A stretch of DNA of 23,597 nt from a virus. The stretch spans positions 1 through 23,597 of the IMG/VR virus record IMGVR_UViG_3300014050_000142; one strand, written 5' to 3'. The notes beneath the pieces are model-generated. The model did no database searches, was not told where the DNA came from, and saw nothing but the letters and a program-made list of their open reading frames with translations. Shown here one piece after another: positions 1 through 23,597 of this stretch. The stretch's first letter is position 1. Every line of letters begins with the position of its first letter. The position numbers were made by a program, and so were the translations under genes.

Positions 1-1883
1 ACACGCAAGTTGGACCCCAAGGACCACAAGGACCACAAGGACCACAGGGGGCTACCGGTAGTCAAGGAACTACGGGACCTCAAGGCACACAAGGAGTACA
101 AGGACCCCAAGGAGTACAAGGGTCTACCGGTCCCCAAGGCTCAACAGGTCCTCAGGGAACTCAAGGTCCAACTGGCTCTCAAGGCGCTACCGGTAGTCAA
201 GGACCTACGGGTCCTCAGGGACCACAAGGCTCAACTGGTGCTCAGGGAGCAACTGGAAGTCAAGGACCGCAAGGACCCCAAGGTTCTCCGGGAGCACAAG
301 GAGCCACAGGAAGCCAAGGCGCAACTGGTCCTCAAGGTGCTCAGGGTCCTCAAGGTGTACAAGGTTCAACTGGTCCTCAGGGTTCCTCCGGAGCGCAAGG
401 CGCTACCGGTAGTCAAGGAGCAACAGGACCACAGGGTACGCAGGGACCACAAGGGTCGGCTGGTACTAACGGAACCAATGGAGCTGCTGCAACAATAGCT
501 GTTGGTACTACCACCACTGGTGCTGCCGGTACATCTGCCTCGGTAACCAACTCGGGCACATCTTCGGCTGCAACCTTTAACTTCACAATTCCACAAGGAG
601 TGCAGGGAGCACAGGGTCCTCAGGGTCCTCAGGGTCCTCAGGGTACTCAGGGTACTCAGGGAACACAGGGAACACAGGGTACTCAAGGTGCTCAGGGACC
701 TCAAGGTCCGCAGGGGGCTGCCGGAACTAACGGAACTAATGGAACGCAAGGAAGTCAGGGACCACAGGGTACGCAAGGACCACAAGGTGCTGCGTCTACA
801 GTTGCTGGTCCTCAAGGAAACCAAGGCGAGTCTTCTGGGTTACAGTTCTATTGGAAATCTGCAACAGCAGATGATGTACCTAATGGTTATGTGTATGGAA
901 TCACTGCAACAAATGCCACACCACCAACATCTATAAATCAAGTTGCATCTCTTCTTTTTAATGGTAACGACATATATGGAATGCAACTATATGACTTCAT
1001 AAATACGTGGGATGACTCTACCTCAACCATAAAAGGCTACATCCATATAAAAAGTAATAGTAATGCTGATAGTGATTATGCAATATATAAAGTAAATTCG
1101 GTTTCAGACTATAATGCAAATAGTGGACCATATAACAGCGTTAACGTTACTTTCATCACAGGTAATGGAACAATTTTTAGTCTTGATGAAAGAGTAACAA
1201 TTGAGTTCTACCGTACTGGAGATAAGGGTTCTCAAGGAACGCAAGGAGCACAAGGAGTACAAGGTGTGCAAGGAGCCACAGGAAGTCAGGGACCGCAGGG
1301 TGCACAAGGACCGCAGGGTACTCAGGGTGCCCAAGGACCTCAAGGTGCTAGCGGTAATGGTCTAGTACCAATTGTGCCGTCGAGTGTGACTGTTGGTTCG
1401 GGTTCTGCGAGTGTTGGAACTAACGGTCTTGTCACGTTTACGAGTGCGTCAAGCGTGCGACTCAATGGTGTTTTTAGCGCGACCTACAAGAACTACGTTA
1501 TTTATTTTTCAGCCCCAATTGGAAATGCAAACAACACACTAGCTAACACAACCCTTGTTCGTTTTTCTACAAGTGGAACTGTAAACACAACTAGTTCCTA
1601 TACACATACAGGCGCCTACACACAAGCCGTTGCACTAGCTTCTACAAGCCGAGGCACATCAACAGGAGCAACTTCTTCGGTTCTAGACTTTCTGCAAGAC
1701 ACCTGCATAACCCTATACGCGCCTTTTGAATCTCGTGGAACATCCGCGACATTTACCAATGCATACGCTCAAACAAATATTTTTGGACAATTTGGATTCA
1801 ACGCCGCAACATCTTTTGACGGTATTCAATTTTTCAACAACACATTTACAGGTACTGTTCAAGTTTACGGATTGGCTAACTAA
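1..1883 (+). CDS. Collagen-like phage tail fibre / receptor-binding protein, 5' end missing
   Basis: The reading frame is open from the window edge (first full codon at base 3) to TAA at 1881-1883, giving 626 visible residues; the true start lies upstream. Gly-X-Y repeats rich in GPQ, GTQ, GAQ and GAT occur in three blocks: about residues 1-160, 199-275 and 407-450. Between the first two is a Thr/Ser/Ala-rich linker (about 161-198). A globular insert with no repeats fills about 281-406, and a C-terminal beta-rich domain fills about 451-626, beginning GNGLVPIV and ending VQVYGLAN. Known biology: collagen-like triple-helical shafts are common in phage fibres, with the C-terminal domain usually trimerising or binding the host. 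Receptor binding here is inference. An internal GTG at 600 lies in the same frame but inside a repeat block, so it is not the real start. The next gene begins at the overlapping TAATG. Confidence 0.88.
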
Positions 1884-4704: not shown

Positions 4705-5167
4705 GCATGTAATTATTGCAGTGGATCCTGGTAAGGCCACTGGAGTGGCTATATTTGAATTTATCAAAGGTGAAGAGCCAGTGATGATTGAGACAACAGA
4801 AGTTCAGTTTGAGACTTTTGCTCCATGGGTACGTAAATGGGTCAACCACTACGTAATGGAAGATGTATCTCTACATGTCGTATGTGAGCGATTTACGATC
4901 AATGCTCAGACAGTAAAAAACTCACAGGCTCCGTTCTCTCTCGAGGAGATTGGTGTACTCAAACAGACCATGCTTGATTGTGGATTAAATATAGAAGATC
5001 TAAAATTTCAATCTCCAGCTGATGCAAAAGCAATGTTTGACAACACTAAACTTAAAAAACTGGAATACTGGAATAGGGGTGGAGAAGGCCATGCACTTGA
5101 TGCTATTAGGCATGGACTGTTATATATGGTAAAGTTGGGCTGGAATCCGTTACCAAAACTTAGGTAG
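4697..5167 (+). CDS. RuvC-like Holliday junction resolvase (RNase H fold)
   Basis: 156 residues. The start is ATG 4697 (MTKHVIIAVDPGKATG), which overlaps the polymerase stop by 8 bases; an in-frame upstream start at 4667 would bury ten more residues in the polymerase gene and lies outside the fold. The first strand carries the RuvC-type D10 in VDPGKATG, a second acidic residue is E64 in VVCERF, and the C-terminal catalytic helix is EGHALDAIRHGL (H132, D135, H139). This matches the RuvC/phage resolvase arrangement D-E-HxxD. It probably resolves branched DNA during replication, recombination or packaging. Specific junction cleavage is inferred from the family. Confidence 0.88.
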   Translation: MTKHVIIAVDPGKATGVAIFEFIKGEEPVMIETTEVQFETFAPWVRKWVNHYVMEDVSLHVVCERFTINAQTVKNSQAPFSLEEIGVLKQTMLDCGLNIEDLKFQSPADAKAMFDNTKLKKLEYWNRGGEGHALDAIRHGLLYMVKLGWNPLPKLR

Positions 5168-20020: not shown

Positions 20021-20715
20021 TTTTTACCAGTGAGCTAGACGTAGAGCTTGTTCAATGTGTTGGAACTGATGAAACAATTGCAAATGCTGCTCGAGTCTCT
20101 ACGGGGGCCGTAGCCGATGCGTATACCGAAGAAGAGAACGCCAAGCTACTTGGGTACCTCATTAAGAATCGACACGGTAGCCCATTCGAGCACAACTCGA
20201 TGACTTTTAAGATCTCTGCTCCTATCTTTGTGTTCCGAGAGTTTCAGCGTCATCGAATCGGCTGGTCTTACAACGAAGTGTCGGCTCGATACAAAGAGAT
20301 GGATCCGGTTTTCTATGCGTACCCACCAACTAGGCCTCTAGTCCAGGAGGGGTCGTCTGCTCACCCAAAGCTTGTTGATGGTCATCCGGCTATGACTACG
20401 ATGGTCAACCACGAAATGATGACTGCATATTCTCACGCTTGGGCTACCTATAAAGCTCTTTTGCGTCAGGGGGCTGCTAATGAAGTTGCTCGATCTGTGC
20501 TTCCTGTCGGTCTCTATAGCCAGATGTATGCGACATGTAATGCTCGCAGCTTGATGGCATTCTTATCCCTGCGAGTCGATGCTGAGAACGCTCAGTTTGA
20601 GACAAAGCCCCAGTGGGAGATCGAACAAGTTGCTCTGAAGATGGAAGAGCACTTCTCTAAATTGTTTCCGGACACACACTACTTTTTTAACAAAAATGGT
20701 AGAGTAGCTCCGTAA
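20017..20715 (+). CDS. thyX: Flavin-dependent thymidylate synthase ThyX
   Basis: 232 residues. ThyX converts dUMP to dTMP using methylene-tetrahydrofolate, FAD and NADPH. The signature is FQRHRIGWSYNEVSARY (RHR at 78-80). Other family features are HGSPFEHNSMTF near residues 53-64 and NEVARSVLPVGLYSQMYATCNARSL in the C-terminal half (read as NEVARSVLP then VGLYSQMYAT). The spacing from RHR to the conserved Ser is eight residues, one more than the textbook RHRX7S. The start overlaps DUF3310 (ATGA). It ends six bases before tRNA-Thr. Together with nrdB it supplies dNTPs for phage replication. Confidence 0.96.
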   Translation: MIFTSELDVELVQCVGTDETIANAARVSTGAVADAYTEEENAKLLGYLIKNRHGSPFEHNSMTFKISAPIFVFREFQRHRIGWSYNEVSARYKEMDPVFYAYPPTRPLVQEGSSAHPKLVDGHPAMTTMVNHEMMTAYSHAWATYKALLRQGAANEVARSVLPVGLYSQMYATCNARSLMAFLSLRVDAENAQFETKPQWEIEQVALKMEEHFSKLFPDTHYFFNKNGRVAP

Positions 20716-20721
20716 CAACTT

Positions 20722-20797
20722 GCCTCCTTAGCTCAGTTGGTAGAGCGCGATACTTGTAATATCGATGTCATCGGTTCGATTCCGGTAGGGGGCCCCA
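20722..20797 (+). tRNA. tRNA-Thr (anticodon TGT), CCA encoded
   Basis: Acceptor GCCTCCT/AGGGGGC (one T-G wobble), D arm GCTC...GAGC, anticodon stem CGATA/TATCG with loop CTTGTAA, T arm ATCGG-TTCGATT-CCGGT. N73 is C, followed by genomic CCA (20795-20797), the only tRNA in the cluster with it. Confidence 0.94.
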
Positions 20798-20812
20798 ATA
20801 TTTTATTTGTGT

Positions 20813-20824
20813 TACTCTAACACC
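20813..20824 (+). promoter_or_regulatory. -10 box for leaderless HNH gene
   Basis: TACTCT (20813-20818), six bases, then ATG 20825, without a Shine-Dalgarno. This geometry favours 20825 over an in-frame TTG at 20807. Confidence 0.6.
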
Positions 20825-21304
20825 ATGAGAATCTGTACGTCTTGTGGAGTATCTTCAGTAGTTAACTCTAGTAAATGCCGCCCGTGCTACAACGAGTACA
20901 TGCGTATCTACACATTGAACAGATATCATCGTCGACGCGCTGAGGCTATCTTATATCTTGGTGGTTGTTGTTCCCGATGTGGTTCCACAGAAAGCTTGGA
21001 ACTTGATCATATTGACTCCAGTACTAAGGCTTATGACATCTCAAAAATACTTGGTGGGGGAAGTAAAGCTAAAGTCCAAGAAGAACTTATGAAATGTCAG
21101 GTTCTTTGTCACTACTGTCACGTCACAAAGGGAAAAGAAGTTGGTGATGACGGCGCTGTTGAGCATGGTGGTGGGGTGACTGGGAAACGAAATTGCAGGT
21201 GCGATCTGTGTGGTCCACTAAAGAGTGCATATATCCGAGAGAAGCAGCTTAAAAAAGAAACAAAAGAGCGTGATAGGCTTTCTAAAAATGAAGACCCCTC
21301 GTAG
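20825..21304 (+). CDS. HNH endonuclease with zinc-binding cysteines
   Basis: 159 residues from ATG 20825. Cys pairs CTSCG and CRPCY near the N-terminus probably form a zinc finger. The HNH core is CSRCGSTESLELDHIDSS followed by KCQVLCHYCHVTKG, where the structural zinc sits on four cysteines and the catalytic His is in LDH. A third Cys cluster (CRCDLCG) follows, and the end is a basic helix (REKQLKKETKERDRLS). Such genes are often homing nucleases that sit between tRNA genes of phages; a packaging-linked HNH is the other common role. The stop TAG (21302-21304) is the U8-A9-G10 of tRNA-Arg, a 10-base overlap. Confidence 0.9.
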   Translation: MRICTSCGVSSVVNSSKCRPCYNEYMRIYTLNRYHRRRAEAILYLGGCCSRCGSTESLELDHIDSSTKAYDISKILGGGSKAKVQEELMKCQVLCHYCHVTKGKEVGDDGAVEHGGGVTGKRNCRCDLCGPLKSAYIREKQLKKETKERDRLSKNEDPS

Positions 21305-21366
21305 CTCAGCGGAAGAGCATATGGTTTCTACCCATCAGGCCGGGAGTTCGAATCTCTCCGAGGGGA
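21295..21366 (+). tRNA. tRNA-Arg (anticodon TCT)
   Basis: 72 bases. Acceptor CCCCTCG/CGAGGGG, D arm GCTC...GAGC, anticodon stem TATGG/CCATC (top pair mismatched) with loop TTTCTAC, T arm GGGAG-TTCGAAT-CTCTC, discriminator A. CCA is not encoded. It overlaps the end of the HNH gene by ten bases. Confidence 0.92.
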
Positions 21367-21369
21367 CAC

Positions 21370-21443
21370 CGGGAGTTAGCTCAGCTGGTTAGAGCCCCGA
21401 ACTCATAATTCGGTCGTCGCGGGTTCAAGTCCCGCACTCCTGA
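21370..21443 (+). tRNA. tRNA with CAT anticodon (elongator Met or Ile2)
   Basis: 74 bases. Acceptor CGGGAGT/ACTCCTG (one G-T wobble), D arm GCTC...GAGC, anticodon stem CCGAA/TTCGG with loop CTCATAA, T arm GCGGG-TTCAAGT-CCCGC, discriminator A. The anticodon stem lacks the three G-C pairs of initiator tRNA and C1 pairs with G72, so it is not tRNA-fMet. Met versus lysidine-modified Ile (reading AUA) cannot be told by eye; AUA would fit the A-ending bias of the cluster. Confidence 0.92.
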
Positions 21444-21444
21444 C

Positions 21445-21488
21445 AACACAAAACCCCTTGGCCGATATATGCCGAGGGGTTTGGTGTT
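21445..21488 (+). terminator. Long hairpin closing the tRNA cluster, likely terminator
   Basis: AAACCCCTTGGC pairs with GCCGAGGGGTTT (21451-21462 with 21471-21482), extended by AACAC/GTGTT outside a mismatch. The downstream T run is short, so it may also act as a 3' processing or protective hairpin. Confidence 0.7.
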
Positions 21489-21489
21489 A

Positions 21490-21737
21490 GATTCTGGATC
21501 ACCGCCTATGTAGTTGCCAGTTAACCTTTCGTTGGGTGAGTTTGAACATTTGAATCATTCAGCTCCTAACTGGCCATGCGGCCATCTCATACAAGATACT
21601 TCTATTTTAGAAGTTATTGAACTGTTCTAGATCTTTGCTTGTGATCGATATATCAGACCTGTCTTACAATAGAAGTAGCCAAGGCGCAGCTCCCCTGCTG
21701 CCCGGCATTGTGAATTTCGCTACCTCACAAAAGCTAA
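21490..21737 (+). other. Gene-free structured stretch, possible second non-coding RNA
   Basis: No believable ORF. Inverted repeats include GCCAGTTA/TAACTGGC (21516-21523 with 21567-21574), ACTTCT/AGAAGT (21598-21603 with 21609-21614), a competing TACTTCTATT/AATAGAAGTA (21597-21606 with 21668-21677), CAGC/GCTG around a CCCC loop (near 21687-21700) and TTGTGA/TCACAA (near 21709-21731). A strong terminator follows directly. A weak promoter (TTGTGA at 21639, TACAAT at 21665) could also make a short RNA from about 21676. Co-transcription from the tRNA cluster is an alternative. Confidence 0.45.
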
Positions 21738-21738
21738 T

Positions 21739-21774
21739 CCCCCTCTTAAAATATATTAGAGGGGGTTTAGTTTT
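21739..21774 (+). terminator. Terminator ending the structured stretch
   Basis: CCCCCTCT pairs with AGAGGGGG (21739-21746 with 21758-21765) over an A/T loop, then TTTAGTTTT. With no coding gene ahead of it, it implies a transcript ends here. Confidence 0.85.
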
Positions 21775-21822
21775 AATAAATATATATGAGAAGTTGGGGG
21801 TATATAATAACAATTTATATAC

Positions 21823-21853
21823 TAGCTCGCAAGATTTTAAGGGGTGCTACACT
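21823..21853 (+). promoter_or_regulatory. Promoter of the ribonucleotide reductase locus
   Basis: TAGCTC (21823-21828), a 19-base spacer ending GTGC, and TACACT (21848-21853), third member of the GTGC-TACNNT set. Transcription would begin near 21860, giving an A/C-rich leader of about 65 bases before the CxxC ORF. Confidence 0.55.
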
Positions 21854-21880
21854 AGATAAACCCAAACAAAAACCCACAAA

Positions 21881-21931
21881 ATGGCCAAGTTTTCTTGGTC
21901 AATTTTCATCTCACCTGGAGGTCAAATATGA
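21881..21931 (+). CDS. Possible 16-residue leader peptide
   Basis: ATG 21881 encodes MAKFSWSIFISPGGQI and its TGA overlaps the next ATG (ATGA at 21928). No Shine-Dalgarno precedes it, so translation is uncertain. A hairpin covers its first codons. If used, it would couple ribosome flow to the downstream ORF; otherwise it is chance. Confidence 0.3.
   Translation: MAKFSWSIFISPGGQI
21882..21906 (+). promoter_or_regulatory. Leader hairpin, possible attenuator
   Basis: TGGCCAAG pairs with CTTGGTCA (21882-21889 with 21894-21901) around TTTT and is followed by ATTTTC. It lies between the promoter and the Shine-Dalgarno of the CxxC ORF, where it could pause or terminate transcription. Confidence 0.4.
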
Positions 21932-22011
21932 AAGATAAAGTAACAACCCTTGGCGAATACCAGGTACCAATCGACCCGATGGATGAATTCCAATGCGAGG
22001 GGTGCCAATAG
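21928..22011 (+). CDS. 27-residue ORF ending in CxxC, resembling a ribonucleotide reductase alpha C-terminal tail
   Basis: ATG 21928 to TAG 22009-22011, with a strong Shine-Dalgarno TGGAGG seven bases upstream, the best ribosome site in this region. The peptide begins MKDKVTTLGEYQVPIDPMDE and finishes FQCEGCQ. Class I reductase large subunits end in a flexible tail with a C-x2-C (or C-x4-C) pair that re-reduces the active site, and nrdB follows just downstream. A detached tail, a relic of a larger nrdA, or an independent redox peptide are all possible. No other part of nrdA is in the window. Confidence 0.5.
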   Translation: MKDKVTTLGEYQVPIDPMDEFQCEGCQ

Positions 22012-22077
22012 GCACGACCCCGATTATCGGGTCCGGCCCGGTGCTCCTCGATCGTTGCTAGAGTTGAGCGCCGGGCC
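22000..22077 (+). promoter_or_regulatory. Strong RNA hairpins between the CxxC ORF and the intein-like gene
   Basis: GGGGTGCC can fold with GGCACGACCCC around AATA across the ORF stop. GACCCCGA/TCGGGTC is an alternative that competes for the same CCCC. Then GGCCCGGTGCTC pairs with GAGCGCCGGGCC (22035-22046 with 22066-22077), 12 pairs with one wobble. No T run follows, so this is not a simple terminator. It may be a processing site, an mRNA-stability element or a cis-regulatory switch. Confidence 0.5.
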
Positions 22078-22088
22078 AACCAATCTTA

Positions 22089-22100
22089 TAAAATGACTAT
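22089..22100 (+). promoter_or_regulatory. -10 box for leaderless intein-like gene
   Basis: TAAAAT (22089-22094), six bases, then ATG 22101, without a Shine-Dalgarno. The gene may thus be transcribed separately from the upstream promoter. Confidence 0.6.
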
Positions 22101-23051
22101 ATGACAGGCGTAACTCCGGAGACCTTAGTTCTTACTTCTGAGGGTTATCAAAAAATTTCATCACTAACTGGATCTCCATTTTTAGTGTGGAATGGGTTTG
22201 ATTACACTCCAGCAGTTGCGCAAAAAATAGCCGAACAACAAAAAGTTATTCGGATAGAGCTTGTTTCTGGGACTGAAATTGAATGTGCAGCTAACTTTGA
22301 ATTTCGGATCCAACGTGACTACTACGTCACTGCAGTACACAACCAAGAAGCAAAACACCTTACCGCCGGAGATCGACTTATTAAGGGTTGGTTTCCGATA
22401 GTCACTTGTGGAGATAAAGAGTTTCCTTACTCATATACACATGGCTACTACTCGGGGGCTGAAAAGTTTCGATTAGGAAATAAAGTTCTCGCAAGATCTG
22501 CGGTCTATGGAGTAAGACGACAATCTTTAAAACTTTTACAACTAAATACAGAGCTAGATCAAAAAACAAGTCTCAAGTTTTTAGAAGATATGCCTGAAGA
22601 TTATGAGATCCCATTTGATTCTGACTACTCACTAGAAACAAAACTAGAGTGGCTAGCTGGACTTTTTGATTCTGGTCTTATCAAAAGAAAAGTAGGGATC
22701 AGGCCTATTTGGGATATTTACTCAGAAAATCTTGATTTCTTAAAAAGACTAAAACTGTTTAGTCACACATTAGGTGGAGACGCTCGAGTAATAAAAAATA
22801 GTGATCTTGGAAGAGCTCACTACACTTTTCGTCTAGCCAATACTTGGATACAAAATCTAAGAAAAATGAATATACCCGTCGTTAATCACACATTTCCCGA
22901 GATCAACTACACAAGAAGAAGTATCGATTACCCAAAAATATCTCAAGTAATTGATGACTATAGATACTCAGACCTGTATAACATCACGCAAGAAAACAAA
23001 GATACGGTTGTCCTCAATGGCATCCTTGTCCCAAACAACTCAGAAAGGTAA
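22101..23051 (+). CDS. Free-standing degenerate intein-like protein (Hint + LAGLIDADG remnants)
   Basis: 316 residues. The N-terminus MTGVTPETLVLTSEGYQKIS matches intein block A with Gly at the Cys1 position. Block B appears as SGTEIECAANFEFRIQ, where the usual T-x-x-H reads A-x-x-F. HLTAGDRL matches the following GD segment. Two LAGLIDADG-type motifs are recognisable, THGYYSGAEK (113-122) and WLAGLFDSGLI (185-194), but each lacks the catalytic Asp. Blocks F/G read SDLYNITQENKD then TVVLNGILVPNNSER, with terminal Asn followed by Ser as in an intein-extein joint and only two more residues. So the whole intein frame is kept as its own gene, with start and stop where the exteins should be. A/T-rich codons contrast with the following nrdB, suggesting separate origin. 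Confidence 0.82.
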   Translation: MTGVTPETLVLTSEGYQKISSLTGSPFLVWNGFDYTPAVAQKIAEQQKVIRIELVSGTEIECAANFEFRIQRDYYVTAVHNQEAKHLTAGDRLIKGWFPIVTCGDKEFPYSYTHGYYSGAEKFRLGNKVLARSAVYGVRRQSLKLLQLNTELDQKTSLKFLEDMPEDYEIPFDSDYSLETKLEWLAGLFDSGLIKRKVGIRPIWDIYSENLDFLKRLKLFSHTLGGDARVIKNSDLGRAHYTFRLANTWIQNLRKMNIPVVNHTFPEINYTRRSIDYPKISQVIDDYRYSDLYNITQENKDTVVLNGILVPNNSER

Positions 23052-23055
23052 CACA

Positions 23056-23597
23056 ATGGGAATCCTCGGAAAAGGAATCCAGGAGGGCCTCCTCCTCAAG
23101 CCAGTTAAATATCAGTGGGCTATGGACCTGTACGATCAGGCTGTGGCAAACACCTGGTTCCCCAACGAAATCCAGCTCGGTGAAGATATCGCCGACTTCA
23201 AGAAGATGACAGAGGAAGAGCAACACGCCATTACATTTCTAATGTCGTTCTTCAACCCCTCGGAGCTGATTGTGAACAAGGCTCTGGCATTTGGTGTCTA
23301 CCCATATCTGAATGCTCCTGAGGCGCACCTGTACCTCGCGAAACAAATGTGGGAAGAAGCAAACCACTGCATGTCGTTCGAATACGTTCTCGAGACGTTC
23401 CCGGTAGATCGTACAGAAATCTACAATCAACACGTTTCGGTTCCCAGTATCAAAGCCAAAGAAGACTTCGAGGTCAAGTTCATCAAGCGCATGACCGAAG
23501 AAACTCTCGACATTGAGACTGTAGAGGGTAAGCAGGACTTTGTTCGCAACCTTGTGGCCTACTCGGTCATCATGGAAGGTATCTGGTTCTACCCGGG
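23056..23597 (+). CDS. nrdB: Ribonucleotide reductase small subunit NrdB, 3' end missing; Tyr-less, class Ic-like
   Basis: The first 180 residues, cut by the window end. ATG 23056 has AAAGG at good spacing, five bases after the upstream stop. NrdB holds the dinuclear metal cofactor that starts radical chemistry in dNTP synthesis. Visible features: WFPNEIQLGED, first metal ligand Glu in FFNPSELIVN, second set EEANHCMSFEY (Glu and His ligands), and the start of the second helix pair (SVIMEGIWFYPG). The residue four after the ligand His, the radical Tyr in class Ia/Ib, is Phe here, with Tyr two residues later, as in Chlamydia trachomatis class Ic (Mn/Fe) NrdB. The first ligand being Glu also fits class Ic. 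Codons are more C-ending than those of the preceding gene. Confidence 0.93.
   Translation, partial: MGILGKGIQEGLLLKPVKYQWAMDLYDQAVANTWFPNEIQLGEDIADFKKMTEEEQHAITFLMSFFNPSELIVNKALAFGVYPYLNAPEAHLYLAKQMWEEANHCMSFEYVLETFPVDRTEIYNQHVSVPSIKAKEDFEVKFIKRMTEETLDIETVEGKQDFVRNLVAYSVIMEGIWFYP

What the first reader, a model, noticed from the sequence alone, without database searches (positions are those of the whole stretch)
22101..23051. Intact free-standing intein that has lost its splicing and nuclease residues
The ORF keeps intein architecture from block A (GVTPETLVL) to block G (VPNN-S) but starts and stops at the extein borders. Visible changes: Cys1 to Gly, block B Thr/His to Ala/Phe, penultimate His to Asn, and the catalytic Asp missing from both LAGLIDADG motifs. 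A decaying selfish gene should pick up stops or frameshifts, yet this frame is open for 316 codons with its own leaderless promoter. That suggests the fold was kept for a new job, perhaps binding RNA, DNA or the adjacent reductase.
Basis: partly seen in the sequence, partly recalled or inferred. Interest (0 to 1): 0.75.

Follow-up and report, generated by a model that had tools for sequence, protein, structure and literature searches.

The report
Domesticated, catalytically dead phage intein
A self-splicing parasite that once sat inside a phage's ribonucleotide reductase has become a separate gene that has lost the residues for splicing and DNA cutting, yet natural selection still preserves it, so it probably does a new job for the phage.

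Summary
ORF 22101-23051 (316 aa) is a full-length intein (AlphaFold2 pLDDT 87.5, pTM 0.87; best PDB matches are complete intein-endonucleases); its relatives are the inteins inside phage NrdA. It stands alone between a 27-codon micro-gene and nrdB. Cys1, the block B Thr/His, the block F Cys and Cys+1 are gone, and both LAGLIDADG acids are replaced. It is not a fresh relic: five free-standing members (four lineages, the others 38-41% identical to the window copy) form one clade (100/96), all open, all without the splicing residues. Between the window and its 91%-identical relative dN/dS is 0.093 (30 residue changes; 84 +/- 4 expected without selection). Two corrections: the nuclease acids were already lost in the closest in-place intein, whose splicing residues are intact, so that loss came before release; and the family naturally ends in Gln or Asn with no penultimate His. 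Best reading: an intein domesticated after both activities died, comparable to yeast HO (nuclease kept) and WhiA (dead LAGLIDADG regulator). Its molecular role, most likely nucleic-acid binding at the nrd cluster, is inferred. In passing: the neighbouring micro-gene belongs to a conserved family that looks like a NrdA redox tail encoded separately.

The parts
22101..23051 (+). Free-standing, splicing-dead and probably nuclease-dead intein gene (316 aa)
   Evidence: Homology to phage NrdA inteins over residues 4-315; predicted full intein fold; dN/dS 0.093; one clade of free copies
22101..22394 (+). N-terminal half of the Hint domain, blocks A and B (residues 1-98, approximate border)
   Evidence: Secondary structure of the model and alignment; Cys1 -> Gly at 22107-22109; block B Thr -> Ala at 22287-22289 and His -> Phe at 22296-22298
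22395..22931 (+). LAGLIDADG endonuclease-like domain (residues 99-277, approximate borders); acids replaced at 22458-22460 (Ala120) and 22674-22676 (Gly192)
   Evidence: Alignment with 22 in-place inteins; model
22932..23048 (+). C-terminal part of the Hint domain, blocks F and G; block F Cys -> Asn at 22980-22982, terminal Asn312 at 23034-23036, Cys+1 -> Asn at 23037-23039, then Ser-Glu-Arg and stop
   Evidence: Alignment
23056..23597 (+). nrdB, class I ribonucleotide reductase beta subunit, cut by the end of the window; starts 4 bases after the intein stop
   Evidence: Pfam PF00268 E=2e-36
21928..22011 (+). 27-codon micro-gene ending CEGCQ, member of a conserved family resembling the NrdA C-terminal redox tail; the constant upstream neighbour of the free intein
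   Evidence: Conserved in phages and hosts; directly upstream of every free intein found
22035..22077 (+). Strong hairpin between micro-gene and free intein, with a like hairpin at the same place in L022 and before nrdA in L042
   Evidence: Folding

Best explanation
The gene descends from an intein that sat in the active-site motif SNL|C of this phage lineage's NrdA. Its endonuclease died first, while it was still in place. Later both exteins were lost around it, the splicing residues decayed, and the whole Hint plus LAGLIDADG protein was kept as a separate gene of the nrd cluster. Shown: origin, single clade, residue losses, purifying selection, predicted full fold. Inferred: the order of events. 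Its most likely way of working is non-catalytic binding: the retained LAGLIDADG scaffold, with the conserved FDSGLxKRK and YxHGxYxGxE[KR] segments, binds nucleic acid and acts as a regulator of the nrd cluster, as WhiA does with a dead LAGLIDADG domain. That binding step is inferred and only about 40% likely on its own; the stated confidence is for domestication of a dead intein.
For: Full-length homology to NrdA inteins. Predicted complete intein fold. Five free copies form one clade (100/96) with the in-place L138 intein as sister (100/100). All free copies lack Cys1, block B His, block F Cys and Cys+1. dN/dS 0.093 against L002, 85 of 123 changes at third codon positions, 30 residue changes against 84 +/- 4 expected, open frame in 0.6% of neutral runs. 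The endonuclease-like domain is at least as constrained as the Hint-N part (0.07 against 0.18), and the LAGLIDADG helices and FDSGLxKRK are the best conserved stretches. Same place in the nrd cluster in all lineages.
Against: Only two close genomes allow a reliable dN/dS; deeper pairs are saturated at synonymous sites. Net charge is neutral, not basic as in many DNA-binding proteins. No copy of the ancestral homing site lies in the nrd region. No added DNA-binding domain. Free copies have much lower third-position GC than their nrd neighbours (0.30-0.45 against about 0.6), so some are perhaps weakly expressed.
Confidence: 0.8

Rival explanations
1. Reductase partner: the free intein binds NrdA or NrdB (phage or host) and acts as an assembly factor, inhibitor or tether. 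Its ancestor was translated inside NrdA, so it was long under selection to coexist with it.
For: Constant position directly upstream of nrdA or nrdB, with only 4-20 bases to the next gene. Low dN/dS over the whole protein, Hint domain included.
Against: It persists in phages with no recognisable nrdA (window relatives G001 and G002, and G009), so phage NrdA cannot be its only partner. Position may be mere inheritance. No interaction data.
Confidence: 0.2
2. Still a nuclease: a free-standing homing endonuclease in the style of HO/WHO that cuts intein-less nrdA of competitors or host, using a shifted acid (Glu121 beside the lost catalytic position) and Asp190.
For: Glu121 and Asp190 are invariant in all free copies and in L138; the endonuclease-like domain is strongly constrained.
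Against: The canonical catalytic acid is replaced in both motifs in every free copy and in the in-place sister (Ala/Ser and Gly), while all 20 other in-place inteins that have the domain keep Asp or Glu. Asp190 is also present in active relatives, at a non-catalytic position.
Confidence: 0.15
3. Recent relic: an intein left over after nrdA was deleted, still open by chance.
For: Splicing residues are lost, nrdA is missing from the related contigs, third-position GC differs from the neighbours.
Against: dN/dS 0.093 with 30 of an expected 84 residue changes; intact frames in four lineages only 38-41% identical to the window copy; single old origin.
Confidence: 0.04
4. Residual protein chemistry: the free protein still performs a cleavage or trans-splicing reaction.
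For: A terminal Asn or Gln is kept in all four lineages.
Against: In three lineages a stop codon follows at once, so nothing is left to release; Cys1, block B His and block F Cys are all lost.
Confidence: 0.03

Closest known systems
NrdA inteins of tailed phages (Rheinheimera Barbavirus, Curvibacter P26059A, Vibrio ICP1 and others)
   Same: Homologous over the full length, same domain order, same host gene and site family
   Different: Those are embedded in NrdA with intact splicing residues and, except for L138, LAGLIDADG acids where the endonuclease domain is present; this one is a separate gene with neither
HO endonuclease and WHO elements of yeasts (PMC7282813)
   Same: Free-standing genes descended from or close to inteins, no exteins, no splicing, outside their host gene; HO is domesticated
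   Different: HO and WHO keep endonuclease activity, lack intein motif G and carry a zinc finger; the phage gene keeps motif G region, has no zinc finger and has lost the nuclease acids
WhiA / DUF199 (PMC3781837)
   Same: LAGLIDADG fold that lost metal-binding and catalytic residues and was kept for another role
   Different: WhiA is cellular, has no Hint domain and has an added helix-turn-helix that binds DNA; nothing of the kind is present here
Bacterial intein-like (BIL) and Hedgehog Hint domains
   Same: Hint fold (2lwy Z 16.7, 6y75 Z 16.6, 1at0 Z 16.5)
   Different: From general knowledge those keep self-cleaving chemistry and are fused to other domains; this one has neither

Membership tests
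Functional intein | Hint fold with N- and C-terminal intein blocks | tested here: met
   Alignment blocks A, B, F, G; predicted fold matches complete inteins over residues 1-312
Functional intein | Splicing residues: Cys/Ser1, block B Thr/His, terminal Asn/Gln, Cys/Ser/Thr+1 | tested here: not met
   Gly3, Ala63/Phe66, Asn294 in block F and Asn313 at +1; only the terminal Asn is kept
Functional intein | Embedded in frame between two exteins of a host protein | tested here: not met
   Own start and stop; a stop lies 3 codons upstream of the ATG; no NrdA sequence in the window or in the related 58- and 77-kb contigs
LAGLIDADG homing endonuclease | Two LAGLIDADG helices and the surrounding fold | tested here: met
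   Helices at residues 111-119 and 178-192; match to 1dq3, 2cw7 and PI-SceI
LAGLIDADG homing endonuclease | Catalytic acid at the end of each LAGLIDADG motif | tested here: not met
   Ala120 and Gly192, and the same positions altered in all free copies
LAGLIDADG homing endonuclease | Site-specific DNA cleavage | not testable with these tools
   Needs an enzyme assay
HO/WHO-type domesticated intein | Free-standing intein relative without exteins or splicing | tested here: met
HO/WHO-type domesticated intein | C-terminal zinc finger and retained endonuclease | tested here: not met
   ORF ends 4 residues after the intein; nuclease acids replaced
WhiA-like regulator | Degenerate LAGLIDADG domain without catalytic residues | tested here: met
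   predicted fold
WhiA-like regulator | Helix-turn-helix DNA-binding domain | tested here: not met
   The 316 residues are fully taken up by Hint and LAGLIDADG parts
WhiA-like regulator | Regulates transcription | not testable with these tools
   Needs binding and expression experiments
Domesticated selfish gene | Purifying selection after loss of the selfish activities | tested here: met
   dN/dS 0.093, neutral simulation, four intact lineages in one clade

The most novel reading that the evidence does not exclude
The free intein is part of a phage module that takes over the host's reductase: the phage supplies nrdB, a NrdA redox tail as a separate peptide, and a dead intein that recognises the NrdA active-site region it once inhabited (protein or gene), so that host NrdA is redirected or controlled without a phage nrdA.
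Probability: 0.08. Interest if true: 0.9.

Novelty: new variant of a known kind. Interest (0 to 1): 0.62.

Why it matters
Inteins are usually seen as selfish elements that either keep moving or disappear. HO in yeast, the best-known domesticated relative of inteins, kept its nuclease. Here a whole intein appears to have outlived both activities, left its host gene and stayed under selection in several phage lineages, and an in-place relative records the intermediate step (nuclease gone, splicing intact). That gives a traceable path from parasite to gene and a small protein ready for direct binding tests.

Tried and rejected
(1) Rfam search of 20700-23597: only tRNAs reach a gathering score. 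(2) The idea that the micro-gene is a remnant of a deleted nrdA: rejected, because it is a conserved gene of its own in hosts and in many phages. (3) Search for the ancestral homing site in the nrd region: no match above shuffled sequence. (4) More free-standing members: an alignment scan, a protein scan, a motif scan, 300 genomes of the host family and the plasmid collection gave no further one (the genome search had no positive control). (5) Free-standing copies among annotated phages: three records were opened. In Bacteroides phage DAC23 and Corynebacterium phage Darwin the match lies inside one long coding sequence; in Proteus phage PM135 it falls in an unannotated gap between nrd genes and was not pursued. 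(6) Promoter scan: nothing above background. (7) Searches of the held literature for free-standing or domesticated inteins in phages found none. (8) A first dN/dS for the micro-gene used a start one base off and is void; at the right start only 6 codons differ from L002, 3 of them silent.

Full report
What is there. The window is a 23.6-kb virus record with tRNA genes, ORFs that read as ThyX and WhiB-like proteins (named from their sequences) and, at its right end, nrdB. ORF 22101-23051 is 316 codons, ATG to TAA, 4 bases ahead of nrdB and 89 bases behind a 27-codon micro-gene at 21928-22011.

Homology. Profile libraries see it only faintly (Pfam Intein_splicing E=0.005; TIGR01445 E=0.008; no PHROG). 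A translated search of annotated phages finds 298 records, 290 of them covering at least 80% of the query and typically aligned over residues 4-315; nearly all listed hits are annotated as the ribonucleotide reductase alpha subunit. In the relatives read here the intein sits in the NrdA active-site region, most often between SNL and the Cys of C[ST]EI. In the PDB the best sequence match of the family profile is 1dq3, PI-PfuI. AlphaFold2 with a 25-sequence alignment gives pLDDT 87.5 and pTM 0.87. The model matches complete intein-endonucleases over residues 1-312 (7qss Z 21.6 over 295 residues at 5.3 A; 1dq3 Z 19.8; Foldseek E down to 5e-12). The alignment used as input holds inteins, so the model is not independent of the homology, but it shows that the window sequence is compatible with both halves of the Hint domain and with the endonuclease-like domain.

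Dead residues. Against 22 in-place inteins the window protein has Gly for Cys1, Ala and Phe for the block B Thr and His, Asn for the block F Cys, and Asn for Cys+1; a terminal Asn is kept. Both LAGLIDADG acids are replaced.

Relatives. Scans of IMG/VR found the same free-standing gene in L002/L015 (91% identical), L022 (41%), L036 and L043 (38% each). L001 is a 99.7%-identical copy and not an independent lineage. In L022 and the window the order is micro-gene, free intein, nrdB. In L036 and L043 it is micro-gene, free intein, nrdA without intein, nrdB. In L042/L138 it is micro-gene, nrdA with the intein in place, nrdB. Three of the other free copies stop directly after the terminal Asn or Gln. 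All free copies have lost Cys1, the block B His and the block F Cys. A tree puts the five free copies in one clade (100/96) with the in-place L138 intein as sister (100/100). L138 keeps Cys1, TxxH, block F Cys, Gln and Cys+1, but already has the altered LAGLIDADG motifs (YLGAEKF, FDAGLEKRK). So the simplest history is that the nuclease was lost in place, before the intein became free. Parallel loss is possible but less simple. How the exteins were lost is not known; the hairpin that precedes nrdA in L042 precedes the free intein in the window and L022, which fits deletion of the exteins in place.

Selection. Window against L002: 123 nucleotide differences in 948, 85 of them at third positions, no indel, no stop; dN 0.053, dS 0.57, dN/dS 0.093. 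Neutral simulation with the same number of changes gives 84 +/- 4 residue changes (observed 30) and an open frame in 0.6% of runs. For scale, dN/dS is 0.019 for nrdB and 0.053 for thyX in the same pair. By part: Hint-N 0.18, endonuclease-like domain 0.07, Hint-C 0.05 (few sites). For the deeper pairs synonymous sites are saturated, so only the intact frames and conserved motifs speak there. A relic is rejected.

How it may work. Shown: origin, loss of catalytic residues, predicted fold, selection, constant place in the nrd cluster. Inferred: function. The best conserved stretches are the two LAGLIDADG helices and the basic FDSGLxKRK segment, which in active relatives belong to the core of the DNA-binding domain (general knowledge of the family). 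A binding role without catalysis, as for WhiA, is therefore the first choice. Against it: neutral net charge, no ancestral homing site near nrd, no added DNA-binding domain. A partner role with NrdA or NrdB and a residual nuclease remain open.

Compared with what is known. HO and WHO (PMC7282813) are free-standing intein relatives that kept the nuclease, lack motif G and have a zinc finger. WhiA (PMC3781837) is a dead LAGLIDADG protein with an added helix-turn-helix. No paper found in the held library describes a free-standing intein with both activities lost, or any such gene in phages; most subscription papers are not in that library. Verdict: new variant of a known kind.

The micro-gene beside it. 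Its product ends in CxxCQ, like the redox tail of many class I NrdA proteins (Curvibacter phage NrdA ends CEACQ). In all 17 actinobacterial genomes inspected, mostly Microbacteriaceae, NrdA itself ends without a CxxC and a short ORF directly downstream ends DPMDxLxC[DE][SG]CQ; in many of the host sequences nrdB begins within about 100 bases after it. Eighteen of 31 phage records with this nrdB carry it within the fetched DNA and two more have a distant version. A pattern scan of IMG/VR found it in dozens of further contigs without this nrdB in the fetched DNA. Half of 60 genomes of the host family carry the pattern, mostly in two or more copies, with zero in the reversed-pattern control; some extra copies lie beside genes that read as hadA/hadB and murB. 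Twenty-seven of the 31 phage records have no recognisable class I NrdA or class-II-like reductase from this search, although many are fragments. This looks like a NrdA tail supplied in trans and deserves its own study; that function is not shown.

Noticed in passing
window 21928-22011 (+); host loci L053-L130; phage loci L019-L043 and L162-L240: Conserved micro-gene of about 21-40 codons ending DPM[DE]xLxC[DE][SG]CQ. In the Microbacteriaceae inspected NrdA lacks its own CxxC tail and this ORF follows it directly, so the redox tail of the reductase seems to be a separate peptide; phages carry it too, mostly without nrdA.
   Followed up: partly
L288 1405-1539; L291 near 2625; L292 near 2850: A second, solitary copy of the same micro-gene family in host genomes, next to genes that read as hadA/hadB and murB and far from nrd. 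Its role is unexplained.
   Followed up: partly
L276 1853-1935, L201 3057-3137, L269 5666-5746, L191 2313-2393: RNA of 81-83 bases directly downstream of the micro-gene in some phage contigs matches both ends of the tmRNA model (E 1e-17 to 2e-14, two over the gathering score) with the whole middle missing; ARAGORN does not call it. Looks like a tmRNA without a tag frame.
   Followed up: partly
31 IMG/VR records: A group of phages with nrdB but mostly no recognisable nrdA (3 of 31 over the PF02867 cut-off; one other, L050, has a class-II-like RTPR reductase). Many records are fragments.
   Followed up: partly
L160 4998-5393: In-place NrdA intein of about 132 residues that has lost the endonuclease domain but keeps the splicing residues: a natural mini-intein.
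   Followed up: no
L158 and L159, 4998-5981: Related intein in a reading frame whose flanks look like NrdB rather than NrdA, so the family seems to have moved between reductase subunits.
   Followed up: no
window 22035-22077; L022 about 4981-5017; L042 about 2550-2590: Strong hairpin after the micro-gene, with the same bulged shape in the window and L022 and a like one before nrdA in L042; no Rfam match.
   Followed up: partly
window 21440-21900: About 460 bases without a clear gene that are almost as well conserved towards L002 as coding DNA, with several hairpins; possibly a non-coding RNA or control region.
   Followed up: no
window 20807-21304: HNH endonuclease gene (phrog_4234, E 1e-28) between tRNA genes, a second mobile-element gene a short way upstream of the nrd cluster.
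   Followed up: no
window 1-1883: Collagen-like Gly-x-Gln repeat protein, possibly a tail fibre, cut by the left end of the record.
   Followed up: no
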